64,000 nucleotides of DNA, taken from NCBI GenBank assembly GCA_036265815.1, contig DATAOI010000011.1, positions 1-64,000 of the forward strand, written 5' to 3'. This DNA is from Gemmatimonadales bacterium (GTDB lineage: Bacteria; Gemmatimonadota; Gemmatimonadetes; Gemmatimonadales; GWC2-71-9). Below are positions 41,415 to 49,651 of this stretch, piece after piece. The translations under genes and the position numbers were made by a program. Under the pieces are notes generated by a model that was not told where the DNA came from, did not search any database, and saw only the letters and a program-made list of their open reading frames with translations. The stretch's first letter is position 1, and each line of letters starts with the position of its first letter.

Positions 41415-42467
41415 ATGGTTCAACCCCAGATCGCGCGCTCATCGAACCGCGACCAGGTCGTTCCGTTTACCGCGGGCGACGGGTTCGCCTGCAATCTGAT
41501 CCACGTGCGCGGCGTCCTGCCTCCGACCCGTGGGCCGGTGCTCCTGGTGCACGGTGCCGGAGTGCGGGCCAACATCTTCCGGGCTCCCGTCCGCGTCTCG
41601 CTGGTCGATTACTTGGTCGAGCACGGCTACGACGTCTGGCTGGAGAACTGGCGCGCGAGCATCGATCTCGAGCCGAACCGCTGGACCCTGGACCAGGCGG
41701 CGGTCTTCGACCACCCGGTCGCCGTGCGGAAGGTGCTGGAGCTGACCGGGGCCAAGACACTCTCGGCGGTGGTGCATTGTCAGGGCTCCACCAGCTTCAT
41801 GCTGGGCGCGGTGGCCGGACTGATGCCCGAGGTCACCACCATCGTCTCGAACGCGGTGTCGCTTCACCCGGTGGTGCCGGCGGTGTCGGCCCTCAAGCTC
41901 AAGCTGGCCATCCCGGTGGTGGCGCGACTCACCCCGTTTCTCGATTGCCAATGGGACCTGCACTCGCCGGGGCTTCTGCCCAAGATGATCACCGCGTTCG
42001 TGAAGCTGACCCACCACGAGTGCGATAACCTGGTGTGCCGCTACGCCAGCTTCACGTATGGCACCGGCTTTCCCACGCTCTGGCGGCACGAGAACCTCAA
42101 CCGCGAAACCCATGAGTGGGTAAAGCAGGAATTCGCCCACGTGCCGCTCAGCTTCTTCCGGCAGATCCAGCGCAGCGTGGCGCAGGGCCGGCTCTCACCG
42201 GTGGAAGGGCGGCGGGAGCTGCCGGACGACGTGGTGAGCCGGCCGCCGCACACCGAGGCCCGGGTCGCCTTCTTCGCCGGCGAGCGCAACCGCTGTTTTC
42301 TGCCCGAGAGCCAGCGCCGCACCTTCGATCATTTCAACCGGCATCGTCCCGACTATCACGCGTTCCACGTGCTGGCGGGCTACGGACACCTGGATGTGTT
42401 CATGGGACAGAACGCCGCCAGCGACGTCTTCCCCATCATGCTGGCGGAGCTGCAGCGCCCCCACTGA
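41415..42467 (+). CDS. Alpha/beta hydrolase with Cys nucleophile
   Basis: A 350-residue cytoplasmic-type alpha/beta hydrolase. The oxyanion segment LLVHGAGVRANIF is at 43-55. The nucleophile elbow, normally GxSxG, reads VVHCQGSTS, placing a cysteine (Cys122) at the catalytic position; His325 in AGYGHLD is the likely base. Cysteine is also used by dienelactone hydrolases. From memory, this sequence type (RANIFR, DVWLENWRASIDL, HCQGS) also occurs as the C-terminal domain of large GMC oxidoreductase fusion proteins. It is first in the cluster, 11 bases before the decarboxylase-like gene. Confidence 0.87.
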   Translation: MVQPQIARSSNRDQVVPFTAGDGFACNLIHVRGVLPPTRGPVLLVHGAGVRANIFRAPVRVSLVDYLVEHGYDVWLENWRASIDLEPNRWTLDQAAVFDHPVAVRKVLELTGAKTLSAVVHCQGSTSFMLGAVAGLMPEVTTIVSNAVSLHPVVPAVSALKLKLAIPVVARLTPFLDCQWDLHSPGLLPKMITAFVKLTHHECDNLVCRYASFTYGTGFPTLWRHENLNRETHEWVKQEFAHVPLSFFRQIQRSVAQGRLSPVEGRRELPDDVVSRPPHTEARVAFFAGERNRCFLPESQRRTFDHFNRHRPDYHAFHVLAGYGHLDVFMGQNAASDVFPIMLAELQRPH

Positions 42468-42478
42468 GAGGAGCCGGT

Positions 42479-43345
42479 ATGGCTGGTCCCGCACGGTTGC
42501 GTCAGCAGGCCGGGCGTCACGCGTTGGTGGATGGAATTCCGTTCACTCTGCCGGTCACCTGTACCCCATCGCCGGCGCTGATGGCCGCCTTCCCCATCAA
42601 CCCGGAGCGCGCCGCCGCCCTCCTCGCCGGCAACGAGGTACACCCGTTCCGCCTGTGGAATCGCGGCCTGCTGGTGATCACGGTCATCGACTACCTCTCC
42701 ACCAACATCGGCACCTACATCGAGTTCAGCATCGCGATCGCGTGCACCCACGGCCGGCGGCCCGCGCCTCGCCTGCTGCCGGCGCTGCTGATGAGGCATT
42801 ACGGCACCGGGCAGTGCGTGATCGATCTGCCGGTCAGCACCGAGATTTCGGTCAAGGGTGGCAAGGGCATCTGGGGAATGCCGAAGCACCGGGCCAACCT
42901 GGATTTCACCGTGGGCGACCGGGTGGTGAGCAGCCAGTACGATCTCGACGGCGAGCTGGCGATGCGGATCGAGATCGACCGCCCCGCCCGGACCTGGCTG
43001 CCGGTCAACGTCGGCACCGCCAACTACTGCGCCTTCCGCGGGCTCCTGATGAAGTCCTACATCTACTTCCGGGGCCATCTGGGGATGGGGTTGCTGGGGA
43101 AGGCCCGCGCCCGGCTCACCCTGGGCGATCACCCGCGGCTGGCGCCGCTCAGGCAGCTGGAGATCGCACCCAAGCCGCTGTTCACCGCGTTCATCCCCGA
43201 CGCCATCGGCGTGCTGGACGATCACTTCGAGAGCTGGTTCCTGTCCTTCCCCCAGCCGCCCACCGGGCCGCCCGAGGGAATGGAGAGCGTGGTGGATCTG
43301 GGCCTGGGCGAAGAGTGGCTCCCGCCGCCGGTGGCGGCGCGATGA
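42479..43345 (+). CDS. Acetoacetate-decarboxylase-like protein
   Basis: ATG 42479 follows GAGAGGAG and gives 288 residues. The region GGKGIWGMPKHRANLDF contains Lys136 in the WGxPK setting that supplies the Schiff-base lysine in acetoacetate decarboxylase. The fold matches the ADC superfamily, which also includes aldolase-dehydratases, so the reaction here is open: decarboxylation of a beta-keto acid, or aldol chemistry on a ketone. It overlaps the next gene at ATGA, giving tight coupling inside the cluster. Confidence 0.82.
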   Translation: MAGPARLRQQAGRHALVDGIPFTLPVTCTPSPALMAAFPINPERAAALLAGNEVHPFRLWNRGLLVITVIDYLSTNIGTYIEFSIAIACTHGRRPAPRLLPALLMRHYGTGQCVIDLPVSTEISVKGGKGIWGMPKHRANLDFTVGDRVVSSQYDLDGELAMRIEIDRPARTWLPVNVGTANYCAFRGLLMKSYIYFRGHLGMGLLGKARARLTLGDHPRLAPLRQLEIAPKPLFTAFIPDAIGVLDDHFESWFLSFPQPPTGPPEGMESVVDLGLGEEWLPPPVAAR

Positions 43346-43845
43346 GCCGGGGCGGGGGGGGCATGCGGCACCGACTCTACGTGCTCAACAACGCGCTGCT
43401 GTTCATGGGCGTCTCGATCTACTTCGGGACCGGCTGGTCCACCGCGATCTTCCAGTTCCCGGTGATGCCCTCGATGACGCCGGAGAATTACCGGCTGCAC
43501 TTCCTCCCTCAGATCGCCGCGGCCACCAATTTCTTCACCTTTCTCGTCTCGCTCATGGTCACCACCTGCGTGATCATGATCGTGGTCGAGTGGAAGCGGC
43601 CGGGGCGCTGGCTCCCGGTCATGCTGCTGGCCGCCATCATCGGGGCCACCTGTCTCACCTACTTCGTGATCTTCCCGGTCAACGCCGTGCTCCGGGCCGG
43701 GATCACCGACCAGGAGATGCTCAACCAGGTGATCGCCCGCTGGAAGCTCCTGACCGAACTCCGGGTCGCCATCTGGAGCTTCGAATGGCTGCTGATGATG
43801 CTCTGGTTCGGGCGCAAGGCCTATCAGGCGGAGAGCGCCACATGA
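43342..43845 (+). CDS. Four-helix membrane protein
   Basis: A 167-residue integral membrane protein with four helices near residues 12-30, 60-82, 91-112 and 140-157. A Trp/aromatic-rich first loop (STAIFQFPVMPSMTPENY) lies between helices one and two. Size and layout resemble DUF1772-type proteins, some of which are monooxygenase-like, but I cannot confirm this. It overlaps both neighbours (ATGA at each end). ATG 43363 is an alternative start. Confidence 0.78.
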   Translation: MSRGGGGMRHRLYVLNNALLFMGVSIYFGTGWSTAIFQFPVMPSMTPENYRLHFLPQIAAATNFFTFLVSLMVTTCVIMIVVEWKRPGRWLPVMLLAAIIGATCLTYFVIFPVNAVLRAGITDQEMLNQVIARWKLLTELRVAIWSFEWLLMMLWFGRKAYQAESAT

Positions 43846-44222
43846 TCGAGCGCACCACTCTCCGGCGCGTGCTGCTGCTCATCGCGGTGCTGACCGTGAT
43901 CAGCGGGCTGGTGCAGGCGGTTGCGCCGGGCCGTCTGCTGAGCCTGCTCTCCGCCGAATCCACCGCCACCAGCCGTCACTTCTTCGGGATCGTGGGCATG
44001 TTCATGGTCCTGTTCGGGGGCCTGCTCTGGCACGCACTCACCAGCGGCTCGGCGCAACCGATCCCCGTGTTGTGGGCCGCCCTGCAGAAGTTCGGTGCCT
44101 CGGCCGCCGTGGGACTCGGCGTGATGCACGGCGTGTTCTCCCCAGTGGCCCTCGGCGTGGCCGGCTTCGACCTCCTCTCGGGCATTCTGGCGCTGATGTA
44201 CTGGTGGATGGTGGCGGAGTGA
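43842..44222 (+). CDS. Small four-helix membrane protein
   Basis: A 126-residue protein with four predicted helices, about 9-27, 47-66, 75-98 and 102-123. The loops are very short. No family was recognised. It overlaps the upstream membrane gene at ATGA and the patatin gene at GTGA, so its product should be made in step with theirs, perhaps as part of a membrane complex. Confidence 0.78.
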   Translation: MIERTTLRRVLLLIAVLTVISGLVQAVAPGRLLSLLSAESTATSRHFFGIVGMFMVLFGGLLWHALTSGSAQPIPVLWAALQKFGASAAVGLGVMHGVFSPVALGVAGFDLLSGILALMYWWMVAE

Positions 44223-45769
44223 CCCGGCTCGCCGGCAGCCCCCCGGCCGAGTACAGCGGCCCCAAGCGGTCGCTGATCCTGGCGGGAGGCGGGATGCGGG
44301 TGGCCTACCAGGCCGGCGTGCTCCGCGCGTTGTTGGAAGAGGGTCTCTGCTTTCATCACGCCGACGGAACCTCCGGCGGGACGATCAACCTCGCCATGCT
44401 CTTCTCCGGCCTGTCGCCGGAGGAGATGTGCGATCGCTGGCGGACGCTCCAGGTGAAGGATTTCGTCTCCTTCCTGCCCCTTCGGGAGTACCTCAAGGGA
44501 TTCGACGTCCAGGCGATGGGAGATGCCGACGGGATCATCCGAAAGGTCTTTCCCCACCTCGGCATCGACCCGGGGCGGATCAACGCCGCCAACGGGATGG
44601 CCGGCACCTTCAACGTCTGCAACTACACCAGGAAGACCAACGAGGCCATTCCCCACGACCAGGTGGACCTCGACCTGCTGGTCGCCGGGATCTCGCTGCC
44701 GATCTTCATGCCGGCGGTGGCCCGGAGGGGCAGCCTCTACGTCGACAGCGTCTGGATCAAGGACGCCAACCTCATGGAGGCGGTGCGGCGCGGGGCGGAC
44801 GAGCTCTGGCTGGTCTGGTGCATCGGGAACACGCCGCACTATCGCGACGGGCCGTTCTACCAGTACGTGCACATGATCGAGATCTCCGCCAACGGGGCGC
44901 TGTTCGAGGAGTTCGACCGCATCCGCGAGATCAACCGGCGGATCGCGGCGGGCGAGCACGTCGACGGACGGACCCGTCCCATCATGCTGCACGTGATCCG
45001 GCCGGAGTTCCCGCTGCCGCTCGATCCCGACTTCTACCTCGGACGGATCGACGCGGCCACCCTGATCGAGATGGGATACCAGGATGCCTGCCGCTATCTC
45101 GCTACCCGCGCCCCGACAGGGGTCGCCTTCGAGCCGGGAGTCACTGCCATGAAGCCGTCGGCCGTCGGCATCACCTTCCGTGAGACCATGGAGGGTCCCT
45201 TCGCGCTGGGCGCCGGGACCGCGGAGGAGGGAGCGCGCCAGGGAGAGGCGGTCAAGCCCAAGACCATGCTCACGCTGCACGCCACGATCACGATCGAGGA
45301 CCTGGACGCATTCATCGCCGATTCCCGGCACGGAGGACGGCTCACCGGATCGGTGAGCTTCCCGCCGATGGGCGATCGGATTCCGGCGCGGACCGGGGTG
45401 TTTCGTCTGTTCTCTCCCGCGGAAGACCCGCGGATGCGATACATGGTCTACGAGATGGGCTTCACCCACCAGGGCACCGACTACTATCTGGCCGGAAAGA
45501 AGCGGGTCAAGGACGATCCGGGGCCGGATCTCTGGGCCGATACCACCACCCTGTTCACCCTGCTGCATCGCGGCCGGGACGACCAGGGACCCGTCGTCGG
45601 TGCGGGCATCCTCAGGCTGAGCATACCGGACCTGATGCGGCTGGTCCCGACGATGCACGCGACCGGGGCGGAGTCGCTGACCCAATCCGCCGCCGCGCTG
45701 GCCCGCTTCGGCAAGTTCTTCCTGGGACAGCTGTGGGAGCGGTACGGTAGCCTTGCCCCACCGCGTTAG
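44219..45769 (+). CDS. Patatin-like phospholipase with extra C-terminal domain
   Basis: GTG 44219 overlaps the previous stop and gives 516 residues. The N-terminal half is patatin-like: oxyanion loop GGGMR (23-27) and nucleophile GTSGG (Ser52). The Asp of the catalytic dyad is probably in VDSVWIKDANL (about 175), where typical patatins have DGG. From about 350 to 500 there is a second domain (ITIEDLDAFIADSRHGG, GVFRLFS, GKKRVKDDPGPDLWADTTTLF) that, from memory, also occurs between the GMC and hydrolase parts of large fusion flavoproteins. Probable lipid acyl hydrolase acting with the cluster's oxidase. Confidence 0.85.
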   Translation: MTRLAGSPPAEYSGPKRSLILAGGGMRVAYQAGVLRALLEEGLCFHHADGTSGGTINLAMLFSGLSPEEMCDRWRTLQVKDFVSFLPLREYLKGFDVQAMGDADGIIRKVFPHLGIDPGRINAANGMAGTFNVCNYTRKTNEAIPHDQVDLDLLVAGISLPIFMPAVARRGSLYVDSVWIKDANLMEAVRRGADELWLVWCIGNTPHYRDGPFYQYVHMIEISANGALFEEFDRIREINRRIAAGEHVDGRTRPIMLHVIRPEFPLPLDPDFYLGRIDAATLIEMGYQDACRYLATRAPTGVAFEPGVTAMKPSAVGITFRETMEGPFALGAGTAEEGARQGEAVKPKTMLTLHATITIEDLDAFIADSRHGGRLTGSVSFPPMGDRIPARTGVFRLFSPAEDPRMRYMVYEMGFTHQGTDYYLAGKKRVKDDPGPDLWADTTTLFTLLHRGRDDQGPVVGAGILRLSIPDLMRLVPTMHATGAESLTQSAAALARFGKFFLGQLWERYGSLAPPR

Positions 45770-45784
45770 GGCGGGAGCGCGACC

Positions 45785-46168
45785 GTGACCCGGGAACGCT
45801 GGTGGGGATCGCTGATCATCGCCGGCTGGCTGGTGGCGGGCGTGGGCTGGATGCCGTTCGCCGCCATGTCGGTGTTCCTGCCTCCCATCTCGATTCTTTA
45901 CTGGACTGTCGTGGGGCTTCCGCTGTACCTGGCCACCTGGCGCTGGCTCCGACCCGGGCTCACCCGGATGGAGCGGTCGATTCTGGTGGCCGGCGGCCTG
46001 GGGTGGCTGCTGATCGATCTCTCCGTCGCCGCGTTGTTCCTCAAGCTGCCCTGGCCGCCCACGCTGCGTGAGGCCGTGACCCTGACCTGGCTCTACTTCC
46101 CTCCCTTTTCCGCACTGCTGTTCGGGGCCACCGTCCTCACCCGCCGGCGCCGGCTGCCGGCGCAATGA
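45785..46168 (+). CDS. Small membrane protein
   Basis: A 127-residue protein from GTG 45785 with four hydrophobic segments (about 7-25, 30-52, 65-85 and 97-118) and a basic C-terminus (TRRRRLPAQ), which suggests an inside orientation. No family was recognised. The start of the metallophosphoesterase gene overlaps its stop (ATGA), placing it in the same cluster. Confidence 0.72.
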   Translation: MTRERWWGSLIIAGWLVAGVGWMPFAAMSVFLPPISILYWTVVGLPLYLATWRWLRPGLTRMERSILVAGGLGWLLIDLSVAALFLKLPWPPTLREAVTLTWLYFPPFSALLFGATVLTRRRRLPAQ

Positions 46169-48051
46169 CCCCTCCACTCCAGGGTGCCCGCGAAGGCAGC
46201 GACGCGGTCACCAGCTCGGGCCTTCCGTTCACCCGGAAGAAAATGGTGGACTGGCTGCATCCGACGCAGCTGGCGATCACCGCCGTCAAAGCGGCACTCT
46301 CGGGCGTCTTCGGCGCCTACACCGACAAGCGCGAGCTGCAGGCAGCCCTGCATCCGTGGACCGGCAGCCAGATCCGCTACGACGCCGATTACAGCAGTTA
46401 CACGGGGAAGGATTTCTGGTTCGACTTTGTGGCCGACGTGGGAGATGGGTTCGACTCGACCTACTCCATCGCGTGGCTGCTGGCCCGGAGCGAGGTCATC
46501 CTGCCCGGTGAGGAGAGGCACCCCCTTCCACAGGGCAGGTTCCTGGTCCTCGGCGGCGACCAGGTGTACCCCACCGCGAGCCGCCTGGAGTACCAGAACC
46601 GATTTCGCGGTCCCTACGAGTCGGCGTTCCCGGGTGAGCCGGATCCCCACACGGACCCGAGTCTCTTCGCGCTGCCTGGCAATCACGACTGGTACGACGG
46701 CCTGACCAGCTTCATCCGGCTCTTCTGCCAGGAGCGCGGGATCGGCCGCTGGGCCACGCATCAGACCATGAGCTACTTCGCGCTCAAGCTGCCGAGCCGG
46801 TGGTGGCTCTGGGGCGTCGACATCCAACTCGAGTCGGACATCGACCGGCCGCAGATGCAGTTCTTCGACGCGGTCGCCAAGCAGATGCTGGTGGAGAGTC
46901 CCGCGGGCGAGGCCCCGCGCCTGATCCTTTGTACCGGCCAGCCGAGCTGGACGGAGTGCGGCCCGGAACCTCCCGACGGCCGTGGCATCCGCCACCCTGA
47001 GCCGGACCTGTTCGACAACGAGGCGTTCTTCGAGGACCGCATCATCCGGCGCAACGGCATCAGGCTGGCGGTGACGCTCTCGGGGGACCTGCATCACTAC
47101 ATGCGCTACACCGAGGCGCAGGAGCCGACGGGAGCCGCGGCGCCGGAGCAGGCCACGCAGCGGATCACATCCGGGGGCGGGGGCGCCTATCTCTACCCCA
47201 CGCACCATATGCCCAAAGTGATCGAGCTGCCCGAGGGCATCTCCAAGGTACGCTACCAGCGGCAGGTGATGTTCCCCGATGAAGCCGAGTCCCGCCGGCT
47301 GGCCCACGGCGTCGGGTGGCTGCCGTTCCGGAACCGCTGGTTCACCTTCTTCCTGGGCATGGTGTACCTGATCTATGCCTGGACGCTGCAGAGCGCCAGC
47401 AAGGCCCATCCGATCTGCCCCCATGCCGGCCCTGGCACCGACTCGCTGATGGAGTGCATTCAGAGTCTCGGGGTCCGCAGTCTCGGCGAGGTACTCCTGG
47501 CCTTCGGGAAGGTCCTGCAGCACAGCCCCTCGAACGTGGTGTTCGGCGCGTTCGTGATCGTTGGGCTGTATTTGTTTCGTGCCTCGGAGGATCACTCGTG
47601 GACCCGCTGGTTCGGGGCCCTGCACGGCGTCGCGCATCTCGGGCTCTGCGCGCTCCTGATCTGGGGGATCTCGATCCTCGACCTGCGGGTCCGACATATG
47701 GAGGTCGACAGCCTGTGGCAGGCCCTCTGCTTCGGAGGGCTGATGCTGCTCGGCGGCGGCATCGCCGGCGCGTGGCTCTTCGCCGGGTACCTCTGGGCCG
47801 CGAGTAAGGACCACGCGTGCCACATGAATGAAGTCTTCTCCTCGCAGCACCTCGCCGGGTACAAGAACTTTCTTCGCCTGCGGATCAGCCCGGACGGGCT
47901 CTTGACGATCCACGCGATCGGCGTGCCCCAGGTTCCGACCGGAGACGCCTGGGTCGAGCGGGTGTCACCGGACCCCGGCGAGTCGCAGTTCGCGCCGCCC
48001 GAGAACACCATCGCCGTGCGCCGCATCGACGGTCCGATCCTTTGTCGTTGA
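46165..48051 (+). CDS. Membrane-anchored metallophosphoesterase
   Basis: A 628-residue calcineurin-like phosphoesterase. The metal motifs are DVGDGFDST (91-99), GGDQ (130-133), GNHDWYDG (172-179) and SGDLHHY near 308. About four transmembrane segments follow from residue 405 onwards, and a soluble tail of about 80 residues ends the protein. Family members cleave phosphomonoesters or diesters; substrate is unknown but a lipid-linked phosphate would suit the context. It ends 13 bases before the GMC oxidoreductase gene, with GAGGA in the gap as its ribosome-binding site. Confidence 0.86.
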   Translation: MTPPLQGAREGSDAVTSSGLPFTRKKMVDWLHPTQLAITAVKAALSGVFGAYTDKRELQAALHPWTGSQIRYDADYSSYTGKDFWFDFVADVGDGFDSTYSIAWLLARSEVILPGEERHPLPQGRFLVLGGDQVYPTASRLEYQNRFRGPYESAFPGEPDPHTDPSLFALPGNHDWYDGLTSFIRLFCQERGIGRWATHQTMSYFALKLPSRWWLWGVDIQLESDIDRPQMQFFDAVAKQMLVESPAGEAPRLILCTGQPSWTECGPEPPDGRGIRHPEPDLFDNEAFFEDRIIRRNGIRLAVTLSGDLHHYMRYTEAQEPTGAAAPEQATQRITSGGGGAYLYPTHHMPKVIELPEGISKVRYQRQVMFPDEAESRRLAHGVGWLPFRNRWFTFFLGMVYLIYAWTLQSASKAHPICPHAGPGTDSLMECIQSLGVRSLGEVLLAFGKVLQHSPSNVVFGAFVIVGLYLFRASEDHSWTRWFGALHGVAHLGLCALLIWGISILDLRVRHMEVDSLWQALCFGGLMLLGGGIAGAWLFAGYLWAASKDHACHMNEVFSSQHLAGYKNFLRLRISPDGLLTIHAIGVPQVPTGDAWVERVSPDPGESQFAPPENTIAVRRIDGPILCR

Positions 48052-48064
48052 GGAGGATGCCTGG

Positions 48065-49651
48065 ATGGCCAATCAGTTCGACGTGATCATCATCGGCAGC
48101 GGCTTCGGAGGGGCGGTGACGGCGTGCCGCCTGGCGGAGCGTGGGTTCAAGCGGATCCTGGTGCTGGAGCGCGGGCGGGAGTGGAATCCCGACAACTACC
48201 CGTGGAAGTCAGGCCACTGGACGTACAATCCCGACTGCCCAGAACACGAGAGCGGGTGGCTCGACCTCCGAATCCTGGACGATATGGTGGTGGCCCAGGG
48301 AGCCGGCGTGGGCGGAGGGTCGCTGATCTACGCCAACGTCTCCATCGAGGCCAAGCCGGACCTGTTCAATCGGGGGTGGCCGCCCGAGATCACCTACCAG
48401 GAGCTCGCGCCCTACTACCGGGCGGCGGGGGCCATGCTGAAGGTGGCGGAGCTGCCGGACAATCAGCTCACCGAGCGCTTCAAGCTCATGCGTGAGGCGG
48501 CGCAGAAGATCGGTGCGGGGGAGCGGTTCCGGAAGCTCTCCCTGGCGGTCACCTTCAGCGACACCTGGAATTACGGTCTGGAGGACCGGTTCGACGAGCG
48601 GCACTCCGTCACCTGGGCCAACGAGCACGGCAAGACCCAGGGAACCTGCGTGCACCGGGGGTACTGCGACATCGGCTGCCCGGTGCAGGCGAAGAACACG
48701 CTGGACCTCAACTATCTCGCTCGGGCCGCGCGGCTCGGCGCCGAGATTCGCGCGCTCCACTTGGCGCGCGCGATCGAGCCGATCGAGCAGGGATACCGGG
48801 TACGGTTCGACGTCATCGATCCGGACCGGCACACCCGGACTCCGGGTATGCATACGGCCGACCGCGTCATTCTCGCCGCCGGCTCGCTGGGTTCCACCGA
48901 ACTGCTCCTCCGCTGCCGGGACCAGTACCGGACCCTGCCGCGACTGAGCCCGTTCCTGGGGAAGAACTGGAGCTCGAACGGCGACTTCCTGACGCCGGCG
49001 TTCTATTCGAAGCGCGAGCCGCCGGTCTCGCCCAGCCACGGGCCGACCATCACGGCCGGCATCGATTTTCTCGACGGCCCACCGGGCGCGGCGTTCCTCA
49101 TCGAGGACGGCGGAATTCCGGACCTGCTCAAGGCCTACCTCGATGGCCGGCTCAACGGCCGTGGCGGGAGCCTGCAGGCCCGCACCTTCCTGCACGGGCT
49201 GCGTGAGGCGGCGCTCGAGCGCGATGCCCTCGCCCGGATGATGCCCTGGTTTGCCCAGGGGGTCGACGCGGCCGACGGACGCCTCTACCTCGGTCGCAAG
49301 TGGTACGCGCCGTGGCGGCGGGCCCTCAAGCTCAACTGGGACGTCGACCGCTCCGCCACCATGATCCAGGCGATCGTGGCCATGCACCTCCGTCTGAGCC
49401 AGGCGACCGGCGGCCATCCCTGGGTGCCGCCGACCTGGACCGTGCTCAAGAACCTGGTGACGCCCCATCCGCTGGGCGGCTGCAACGTCGGCATCACCCA
49501 GTCTGACGGTGTGGTCGATCACCGGGGCGCCGTCTTCGGCTATCCTGGTCTGTACGTCGCGGATGGCGCTATCATCCCCGAGGCGGTCGGATTGAATCCC
49601 TCCCGCACCATCGCCGCCCTGGCGGAGCGGATTGCGGCGCTCATGAGCTGA
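48065..49651 (+). CDS. GMC-family FAD oxidoreductase (cholesterol-oxidase-like)
   Basis: A 528-residue flavoprotein. The FAD-binding GSGFGGAV (residues 11-18), GVGGGSLIYANV (about 80) and catalytic HPLGGCN (about 468) with NPSRTIAALAERI are typical of cholesterol-oxidase-like GMC enzymes. A cysteine-rich insert CVHRGYCDIGCPVQAKNT (near 198) is found in this subgroup. There is no signal peptide. It oxidises an alcohol of a sterol-like or other lipid, using oxygen or another acceptor. It is the last gene of the cluster. Confidence 0.88.
   Translation: MANQFDVIIIGSGFGGAVTACRLAERGFKRILVLERGREWNPDNYPWKSGHWTYNPDCPEHESGWLDLRILDDMVVAQGAGVGGGSLIYANVSIEAKPDLFNRGWPPEITYQELAPYYRAAGAMLKVAELPDNQLTERFKLMREAAQKIGAGERFRKLSLAVTFSDTWNYGLEDRFDERHSVTWANEHGKTQGTCVHRGYCDIGCPVQAKNTLDLNYLARAARLGAEIRALHLARAIEPIEQGYRVRFDVIDPDRHTRTPGMHTADRVILAAGSLGSTELLLRCRDQYRTLPRLSPFLGKNWSSNGDFLTPAFYSKREPPVSPSHGPTITAGIDFLDGPPGAAFLIEDGGIPDLLKAYLDGRLNGRGGSLQARTFLHGLREAALERDALARMMPWFAQGVDAADGRLYLGRKWYAPWRRALKLNWDVDRSATMIQAIVAMHLRLSQATGGHPWVPPTWTVLKNLVTPHPLGGCNVGITQSDGVVDHRGAVFGYPGLYVADGAIIPEAVGLNPSRTIAALAERIAALMS

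What the first reader, a model, noticed from the sequence alone, without database searches (positions are those of the whole stretch)
44219..45769. Patatin fused to a domain that elsewhere belongs to GMC fusion flavoproteins
Residues about 350-500 are not patatin. The pattern ITIEDLDAFIADSRHGG...GVFRLFS...GKKRVKDDPGPDLWADTTTLF matches what I recall as the linker domain between GMC oxidase and hydrolase in large fusions. Swapping this domain onto a lipase suggests it recruits the oxidase or binds lipid. The patatin Asp dyad also reads DSV instead of DGG.
Basis: partly seen in the sequence, partly recalled or inferred. Interest (0 to 1): 0.6.

Follow-up and report, generated by a model that had tools for sequence, protein, structure and literature searches.

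The report
Shared unnamed domain in lipid enzymes
A lipase gene carries an unnamed extra domain that, in many other bacteria, is joined instead to an alcohol-oxidising enzyme, another lipase or a decarboxylase from the same gene cluster, which marks a widespread and apparently undescribed lipid-processing pathway.

Summary
Residues about 313-516 of the patatin at 44219-45769 form a separate, confidently predicted domain ("X") with no Pfam, NCBIfam or PDB match. X also occurs as GMC-X, X-GMC, X-HYD, HYD-X, ADC-X, and often as a small stand-alone protein. In 91 loci from at least ten phyla, X lies beside the enzymes that surround it in the window: a Cys-nucleophile acid-lipase-like hydrolase, an ADC-like protein, a patatin, metallophosphoesterases and a cholesterol-oxidase-like GMC with a 3Fe-4S-type cysteine motif. 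The window holds the unfused version of a pathway that other bacteria fuse. X has an invariant face and a polar site; six patatin-linked copies lost part of that site where a second, intact X sits on the GMC protein. X therefore probably binds or acts on the shared lipid rather than only gluing proteins. The Ser-Asp dyad of the patatin is intact (DSV keeps the Asp). Function is inferred; no substrate is known. Domain and cluster appear undescribed in the papers I could search.

The parts
44219..45154 (+). Patatin catalytic domain (residues 1-312) of the two-domain protein; oxyanion GGGMR 23-27, nucleophile S52 in GTSGG, catalytic Asp D176 in YVDSV
   Evidence: Pfam PF01734 E 1.3e-20; S52 and D176 in 40/40 relatives; PDB folds PlpD, CapV, CapE
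45155..45766 (+). Domain X (residues 313-516), the unnamed mobile domain; key residues E322, H371, Y411, K428, D433, D437, W439, D441, T442-444
   Evidence: Homologues fused to GMC, hydrolase, ADC, or alone; pLDDT 87 as a separate fold
41415..42467 (+). Alpha/beta-hydrolase (HYD), acid-lipase-like with Cys122 as nucleophile (HCQG), N292, H325; same family as the C-terminal third of GMC-X-HYD fusions
42527..43345 (+). Acetoacetate-decarboxylase-like protein (ADC); start codon uncertain (GTG 42527 assumed)
   Evidence: PF06314 E 2.6e-12; ADC-X fusions elsewhere
43342..43845 (+). DUF1772/anthrone-oxygenase-like membrane protein, weak match; start approximate
   Evidence: PF08592 E 0.004, below cut-off; co-occurs in 12 loci
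43842..44222 (+). Small membrane protein with three hydrophobic segments, overlaps its neighbours by 4 bases
45785..46168 (+). Small hydrophobic membrane protein, seen only in the window
46165..48051 (+). Calcineurin-like metallophosphoesterase with C-terminal membrane segments (GNHD and GDxHH motifs)
   Evidence: PF00149 E 0.005, below cut-off; same family in 21 X loci
48065..49651 (+). GMC oxidoreductase, cholesterol-oxidase-like, H468/N511 catalytic pair and C195-x5-C201-x3-C205 motif

Best explanation
The protein is a patatin-type acyl hydrolase with a C-terminal copy of a mobile domain, X. X serves a conserved multi-enzyme lipid pathway. Proposed working: X is a small beta-rich domain that binds the hydrophobic intermediate shared by the cluster in a pocket with a polar site and presents it to, or passes it between, the hydrolases (patatin, Cys-lipase), the phosphoesterase and the GMC dehydrogenase. 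Which enzyme X is tethered to does not matter much, so it has been fused to different partners. In the window the patatin carries the only X of the genome, and X serves the free GMC and hydrolase in trans. Likely order: acyl (and perhaps phosphate) groups are removed from a complex lipid, then the exposed secondary alcohol is oxidised by the GMC enzyme, with electrons leaving through an Fe-S cluster. Shown: homology, fusion partners, gene neighbourhood, intact catalytic residues, predicted separate fold. Inferred: ligand binding, substrate class, order of steps, electron route.
For: X architectures in 91 loci: PAT-X 36, X alone 33, GMC-X 13, X-HYD 9, X-GMC 8, GMC-X-HYD 5, ADC-X 2, HYD-X 1. Of 59 loci with full flanks, 57 have a cluster-type GMC and 54 the HYD; over all loci 83 of 83 nearest GMC genes and 78 of 80 HYD genes lie on the X strand. 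In 394 genomes of the class, X occurs in 12 and HYD in 10, all 10 among the 12 (hypergeometric 3e-18). The X tree needs 28 partner changes. Conservation alternates along most strands, so one face is invariant. E322, K428, T442 and T443 were lost together in six PAT-X copies whose neighbouring X-GMC keeps all of them. Relatives of the partners are lipid enzymes: cholesterol oxidase, gastric/lysosomal acid lipase, PlpD phospholipase. The only weak structural matches of X are lipocalin, Diels-Alderase and dirigent-type barrels.
Against: No confident structural match for X (best E 0.045, probability 0.41, TM about 0.25), so the pocket is not demonstrated. The co-loss of E322/K428/TT is one clade, so one event. 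No substrate or assay. Conservation of D437-T444 is inflated in the 80 scan loci because the scan pattern demanded it.
Confidence: 0.55

Rival explanations
1. X is itself an enzyme (for example an isomerase, cyclase or hydrolase) that performs one step of the pathway; the fusions are ordinary multi-step enzyme fusions.
For: A third of X copies have no other recognised domain, most of them about 200-230 aa; invariant polar residues E, H, Y, K, D, D, T; E322, K428 and TT lost together when another intact X is present; weak structural resemblance to Diels-Alderase and dirigent-type catalytic barrels.
Against: No family or fold match to any enzyme; pocket residues would also be conserved in a binding protein.
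Confidence: 0.27
2. X is a docking domain that recruits the GMC oxidoreductase (or another partner) into a complex.
For: X is fused to four different partner enzymes and otherwise lies next to them; pTM 0.92 for PAT-X suggests fixed packing.
Against: One face of the strands is invariant and the other variable; stand-alone X is common; co-loss of polar residues in copies with a second X is not expected for a dock.
Confidence: 0.15
3. X is a passive C-terminal part of a patatin subfamily with no role of its own.
For: In this sample PAT-X is the commonest single architecture.
Against: X occurs without patatin in most of the ORFs counted (71 of 107) and folds on its own.
Confidence: 0.03

Closest known systems
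GMC-X-alpha/beta-hydrolase fusions (for example on plasmids of Leptospira borgpetersenii, Azospirillum oryzae and Rhizobium leguminosarum, annotated 'alpha/beta fold hydrolase')
   Same: Contain X at 30-38% identity over almost its whole length; such fusions also carry the GMC and HYD families that are separate genes in the window
   Different: There X joins oxidase and hydrolase in one chain; in the window X sits on the patatin and the others are free
Patatin PF01734 (PlpD, ExoU, CapV/CapE)
   Same: Pfam match, Ser-Asp dyad, oxyanion glycines, fold
   Different: Extra domain X; Asp followed by SV rather than GG/GA
Cholesterol oxidase (GMC; Streptomyces 1b4v)
   Same: Closest solved relative of the window GMC; His/Asn pair kept
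   Different: The window GMC carries C-x5-C-x3-C, absent from the aligned Streptomyces enzyme; far below the NCBIfam equivalog cut-off (236 against 850 bits)
FAD glucose dehydrogenase alpha subunit of Burkholderia cepacia (PMC6719666)
   Same: 3Fe-4S ligands Cys212, Cys218, Cys222 have the same spacing as C195, C201, C205; His/Asn catalytic pair
   Different: Sugar substrate, with hitchhiker and multihaem subunits that were not seen next to the window gene
Gastric / lysosomal acid lipase (1hlg, 6v7n)
   Same: Closest solved relatives of the window hydrolase, weak
   Different: Nucleophile is Cys (H-C-x-G in 81 of 83) instead of Ser; Asn at the likely acid position
Lipocalin / allene-oxide-cyclase-like beta-barrels
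   Same: Weakly the best structural neighbours of X
   Different: Not significant; X has extra helices and no lipocalin sequence match

Membership tests
Patatin (PF01734) | G-x-S-x-G nucleophile | tested here: met
   GTSGG 50-54; S52 in 40/40
Patatin (PF01734) | Oxyanion G-G-G-x-[KR] | tested here: met
   GGGMR 23-27; R or K in 40/40
Patatin (PF01734) | Catalytic Asp | tested here: met
   D176 in 40/40
Patatin (PF01734) | D-G-[GA] context of the Asp (typical, not needed for the dyad) | tested here: not met
   DSV here; mostly D-[SAT]-[VGA] across the subfamily; the Asp itself is kept
Patatin (PF01734) | Patatin fold | tested here: met
   Foldseek to PlpD E 1e-10, patatin-17 E 4e-6
Domain X of GMC-X-hydrolase fusions | Sequence homology over the whole domain | tested here: met
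   E 1e-18 to 1e-36 to X of GMC-X-hydrolase ORFs over about 200 residues
Domain X of GMC-X-hydrolase fusions | Conserved F320, E322, H371, Y411, K428, D437, W439, D441, T442-444 | tested here: met
   All present in the window copy
GMC oxidoreductase / CAZy AA3 (as membership of the patatin protein itself) | GMC FAD-binding and C-terminal domains | tested here: not met
   No GMC match in P0001
Lipocalin/calycin superfamily (for X) | Closed 8-strand barrel with significant fold match | tested here: inconclusive
   Nine strands predicted, best match E 0.045, TM 0.22-0.26
Cholesterol oxidase (window GMC) | His/Asn catalytic pair | tested here: met
   H468 and N511 in 84/84
Cholesterol oxidase (window GMC) | NCBIfam equivalog cut-off | tested here: not met
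   236.5 bits against 850
3Fe-4S GMC dehydrogenases (window GMC) | C-x5-C-x3-C cluster ligands | tested here: met
   84/84; spacing as in PMC6719666
3Fe-4S GMC dehydrogenases (window GMC) | Cluster actually bound | not testable with these tools
   Needs EPR or a structure

The most novel reading that the evidence does not exclude
X is a new small lipid-handling or catalytic domain that is the hub of an undescribed, widely distributed bacterial pathway that processes a sterol-like or other complex lipid, made of a Cys-nucleophile acid-lipase homologue, a patatin, a phosphoesterase, an ADC-like protein and an Fe-S cholesterol-oxidase-like dehydrogenase.
Probability: 0.45. Interest if true: 0.75.

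Novelty: new variant of a known kind. Interest (0 to 1): 0.57.

Why it matters
One unnamed domain ties together four or five enzyme families that are annotated separately as 'lipase', 'oxidase', 'decarboxylase' and 'phosphoesterase' across at least ten phyla (Nitrosomonas, Halomonas, methanotrophs, cyanobacteria, Nitrospirota, Acidobacteriota, Bacteroidota, Actinomycetota and others). That gives a concrete pathway hypothesis and candidate active-site residues. It may also explain a wrong label: in Roseithermus a patatin-like protein was called CAZy AA3, a GMC family, by dbCAN, probably because of X; it and a GMC gene five locus tags away were the only two up-regulated AA genes (PMC7409140).

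Tried and rejected
Rejected: X as part of the patatin fold; DSV as loss of the dyad. Led nowhere: PDB sequence search with the X profile (one chance hit); viral fold library (no significant match); alignment A1 as a scan query was too diverse, replaced by A2; unbiased neighbour clustering gave mainly lineage-specific genes plus two further metallophosphatase families. C-terminal tails of patatins without X (L058, L099, L102) look like a decayed X but are not provably so (hhalign E 0.0014, probability 18% against A5; E 0.021 against A1). Literature searches for the fusion, the cluster or the domain found no description.

Full report
What is there. The ORF 44219-45769 codes for 516 residues. Pfam finds Patatin at 19-180 and nothing beyond; NCBIfam finds nothing that reaches a cut-off; PDB sequence matches are only to patatin parts (ExoU, PlpD).

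Is it the GMC-fusion linker? The C-terminal 210 residues alone were searched in 394 genomes of the same class: 12 genomes match. The matching ORFs are patatin-X, GMC-X, X-hydrolase, X alone, GMC-X-hydrolase of 1166-1232 aa, and a 1292-aa metallophosphatase-GMC-X. Plasmid records give the same domain inside proteins annotated 'alpha/beta fold hydrolase' or 'GMC oxidoreductase' in Leptospira, Azospirillum, Rhizobium and Bernardetia.

How widespread and with what? A scan of GTDB species genomes with a pattern from the domain gave 236 confirmed places; the best 80 were read with up to 10 kb flanks and combined with 11 loci from the class search. ORFs were classified with profiles seeded from the window's own genes. 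X occurs as PAT-X 36, X alone 33, GMC-X 13, X-HYD 9, X-GMC 8, GMC-X-HYD 5, ADC-X 2, HYD-X 1. Sampling favours copies similar to the window, so GMC-X-HYD is under-represented. The neighbourhood repeats the window: hydrolase, ADC-like, DUF1772-like, small membrane protein, patatin, metallophosphoesterase, GMC. GMC is present in 57 and HYD in 54 of 59 loci with full flanks; where present in any locus, 83/83 and 78/80 are on the same strand. Two other metallophosphatase groups, PhoD-like and a second calcineurin-like one, replace the window type in other loci, so that 47 of 91 loci carry one of the three. The HYD family is found in 10 of the 394 class genomes, all of them among the 12 that have X. 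In the window's own genome X and HYD occur once, against 4 GMC-type and 4 patatin genes in all.

Fold. X alone is predicted with pLDDT 87 and consists of about nine strands with helices in between and a long C-terminal helix. The whole protein is predicted with pLDDT 92 and pTM 0.92. Foldseek finds no significant relative of X in the PDB or among viral proteins; the best weak hits are lipocalin-type prostaglandin D synthase and, with the full model, Diels-Alderase/dirigent barrels. The patatin part matches PlpD, CapV, CapE and patatin-17.

Signs of a functional site in X. In 106 X sequences, along most predicted strands one parity of positions is strongly conserved and the other is not, which means one invariant face. 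F320, G326 and Y411 are invariant, and E322, H371, K428, D437, W439, D441 and T442-444 are over 90% conserved. The last group (D437 to T444) is partly selected by the scan pattern, but E322, H371, Y411 and K428 are not. In six loci (Nitrosomonas, Methylocaldum, Methylumidiphilus) the patatin-linked X has lost E322, K428, T442 and T443 (T444 too in five of the six) while it keeps H371, Y411, W439 and D441 (D437 is Glu in one), and each has a second, fully intact X fused to its GMC protein. These copies form one clade, hence one event, but the joint loss suggests that these residues work together and are dispensable only when another X supplies them.

Partner swapping. On the X tree the architecture label changes 28 times at the least (starred branches alone force fewer). 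A domain that can sit on either end of GMC or HYD, on PAT or ADC, or alone, yet stays in the same gene cluster, is a shared part of one process rather than a regulatory add-on of one enzyme.

The partner enzymes. GMC: cholesterol oxidase is the nearest solved relative; His468/Asn511 and Cys195-x5-Cys201-x3-Cys205 are in 84/84, the cysteines with the spacing of the 3Fe-4S ligands of B. cepacia FAD glucose dehydrogenase (PMC6719666). HYD: acid lipases are the nearest solved relatives, but the nucleophile is Cys122 in 81/83 and the likely acid is Asn292 in 81/83. Patatin: Ser52/Asp176 in 40/40. The set reads as a lipid ester / lipid alcohol pathway; the sterol-like substrate is an inference from the nearest relatives only.

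Outside support. In Roseithermus sacchariphilus strain RA a 'patatin-like phospholipase family protein' (AWN76_007050) was assigned to CAZy AA3 (GMC oxidoreductases) by dbCAN; it and the GMC gene AWN76_007025 were the only up-regulated AA genes on xylan (FC 2.70 and 1.88; PMC7409140). The locus of another strain of this species (L034) shows GMC, HYD, ADC, DUF1772, small membrane protein and PAT-X in this order, which fits the locus-tag spacing. That the AA3 label came from X, and that these tags are this cluster, is my inference.

Verdict. Observation confirmed, homology claim right, functional claim open. The more interesting finding is larger than the one reported: an unnamed mobile domain that marks a conserved, apparently undescribed lipid gene cluster.

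Noticed in passing
window 48641-48703 (GMC residues 193-213): GMC oxidoreductase with invariant C-x5-C-x3-C, the 3Fe-4S ligand spacing of direct-electron-transfer FAD glucose dehydrogenase, in all 84 cluster GMCs.
   Followed up: partly
window 41775-41786 (HYD residues 121-124): Acid-lipase-like hydrolase family with Cys in place of the nucleophile Ser (81/83) and Asn at the likely acid position; might be an acyltransferase rather than a lipase.
   Followed up: partly
L037, L054, L057, L060, L082, L084: Patatin-linked X that lost E322, K428 and most of T442-444 next to an intact X-GMC.
   Followed up: yes
L058, L099, L102: Patatins of the same cluster whose C-terminal tail no longer matches X; the intact X there is on ADC or GMC. 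Possibly decayed X.
   Followed up: partly
L023:1982-3787, L043:2444-4075: PhoD-like and a second calcineurin-like phosphatase family recur beside X in other lineages, as apparent replacements of the window metallophosphoesterase.
   Followed up: partly
L110:13254-14831 and L107, L028, L029, L043: RoxA-like cytochrome c protein near X clusters (5 loci); possible electron acceptor for the GMC enzyme.
   Followed up: no
L113 (Rhizobium leguminosarum plasmid): X-bearing 'alpha/beta fold hydrolase' fusion with a CoA-transferase and, 6 kb away, PhaE of PHA synthase nearby.
   Followed up: no
L023:10277-12500 (- strand): Two short HYD fragments (140 and 190 aa frames) on the opposite strand, likely a broken second hydrolase copy.
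   Followed up: no
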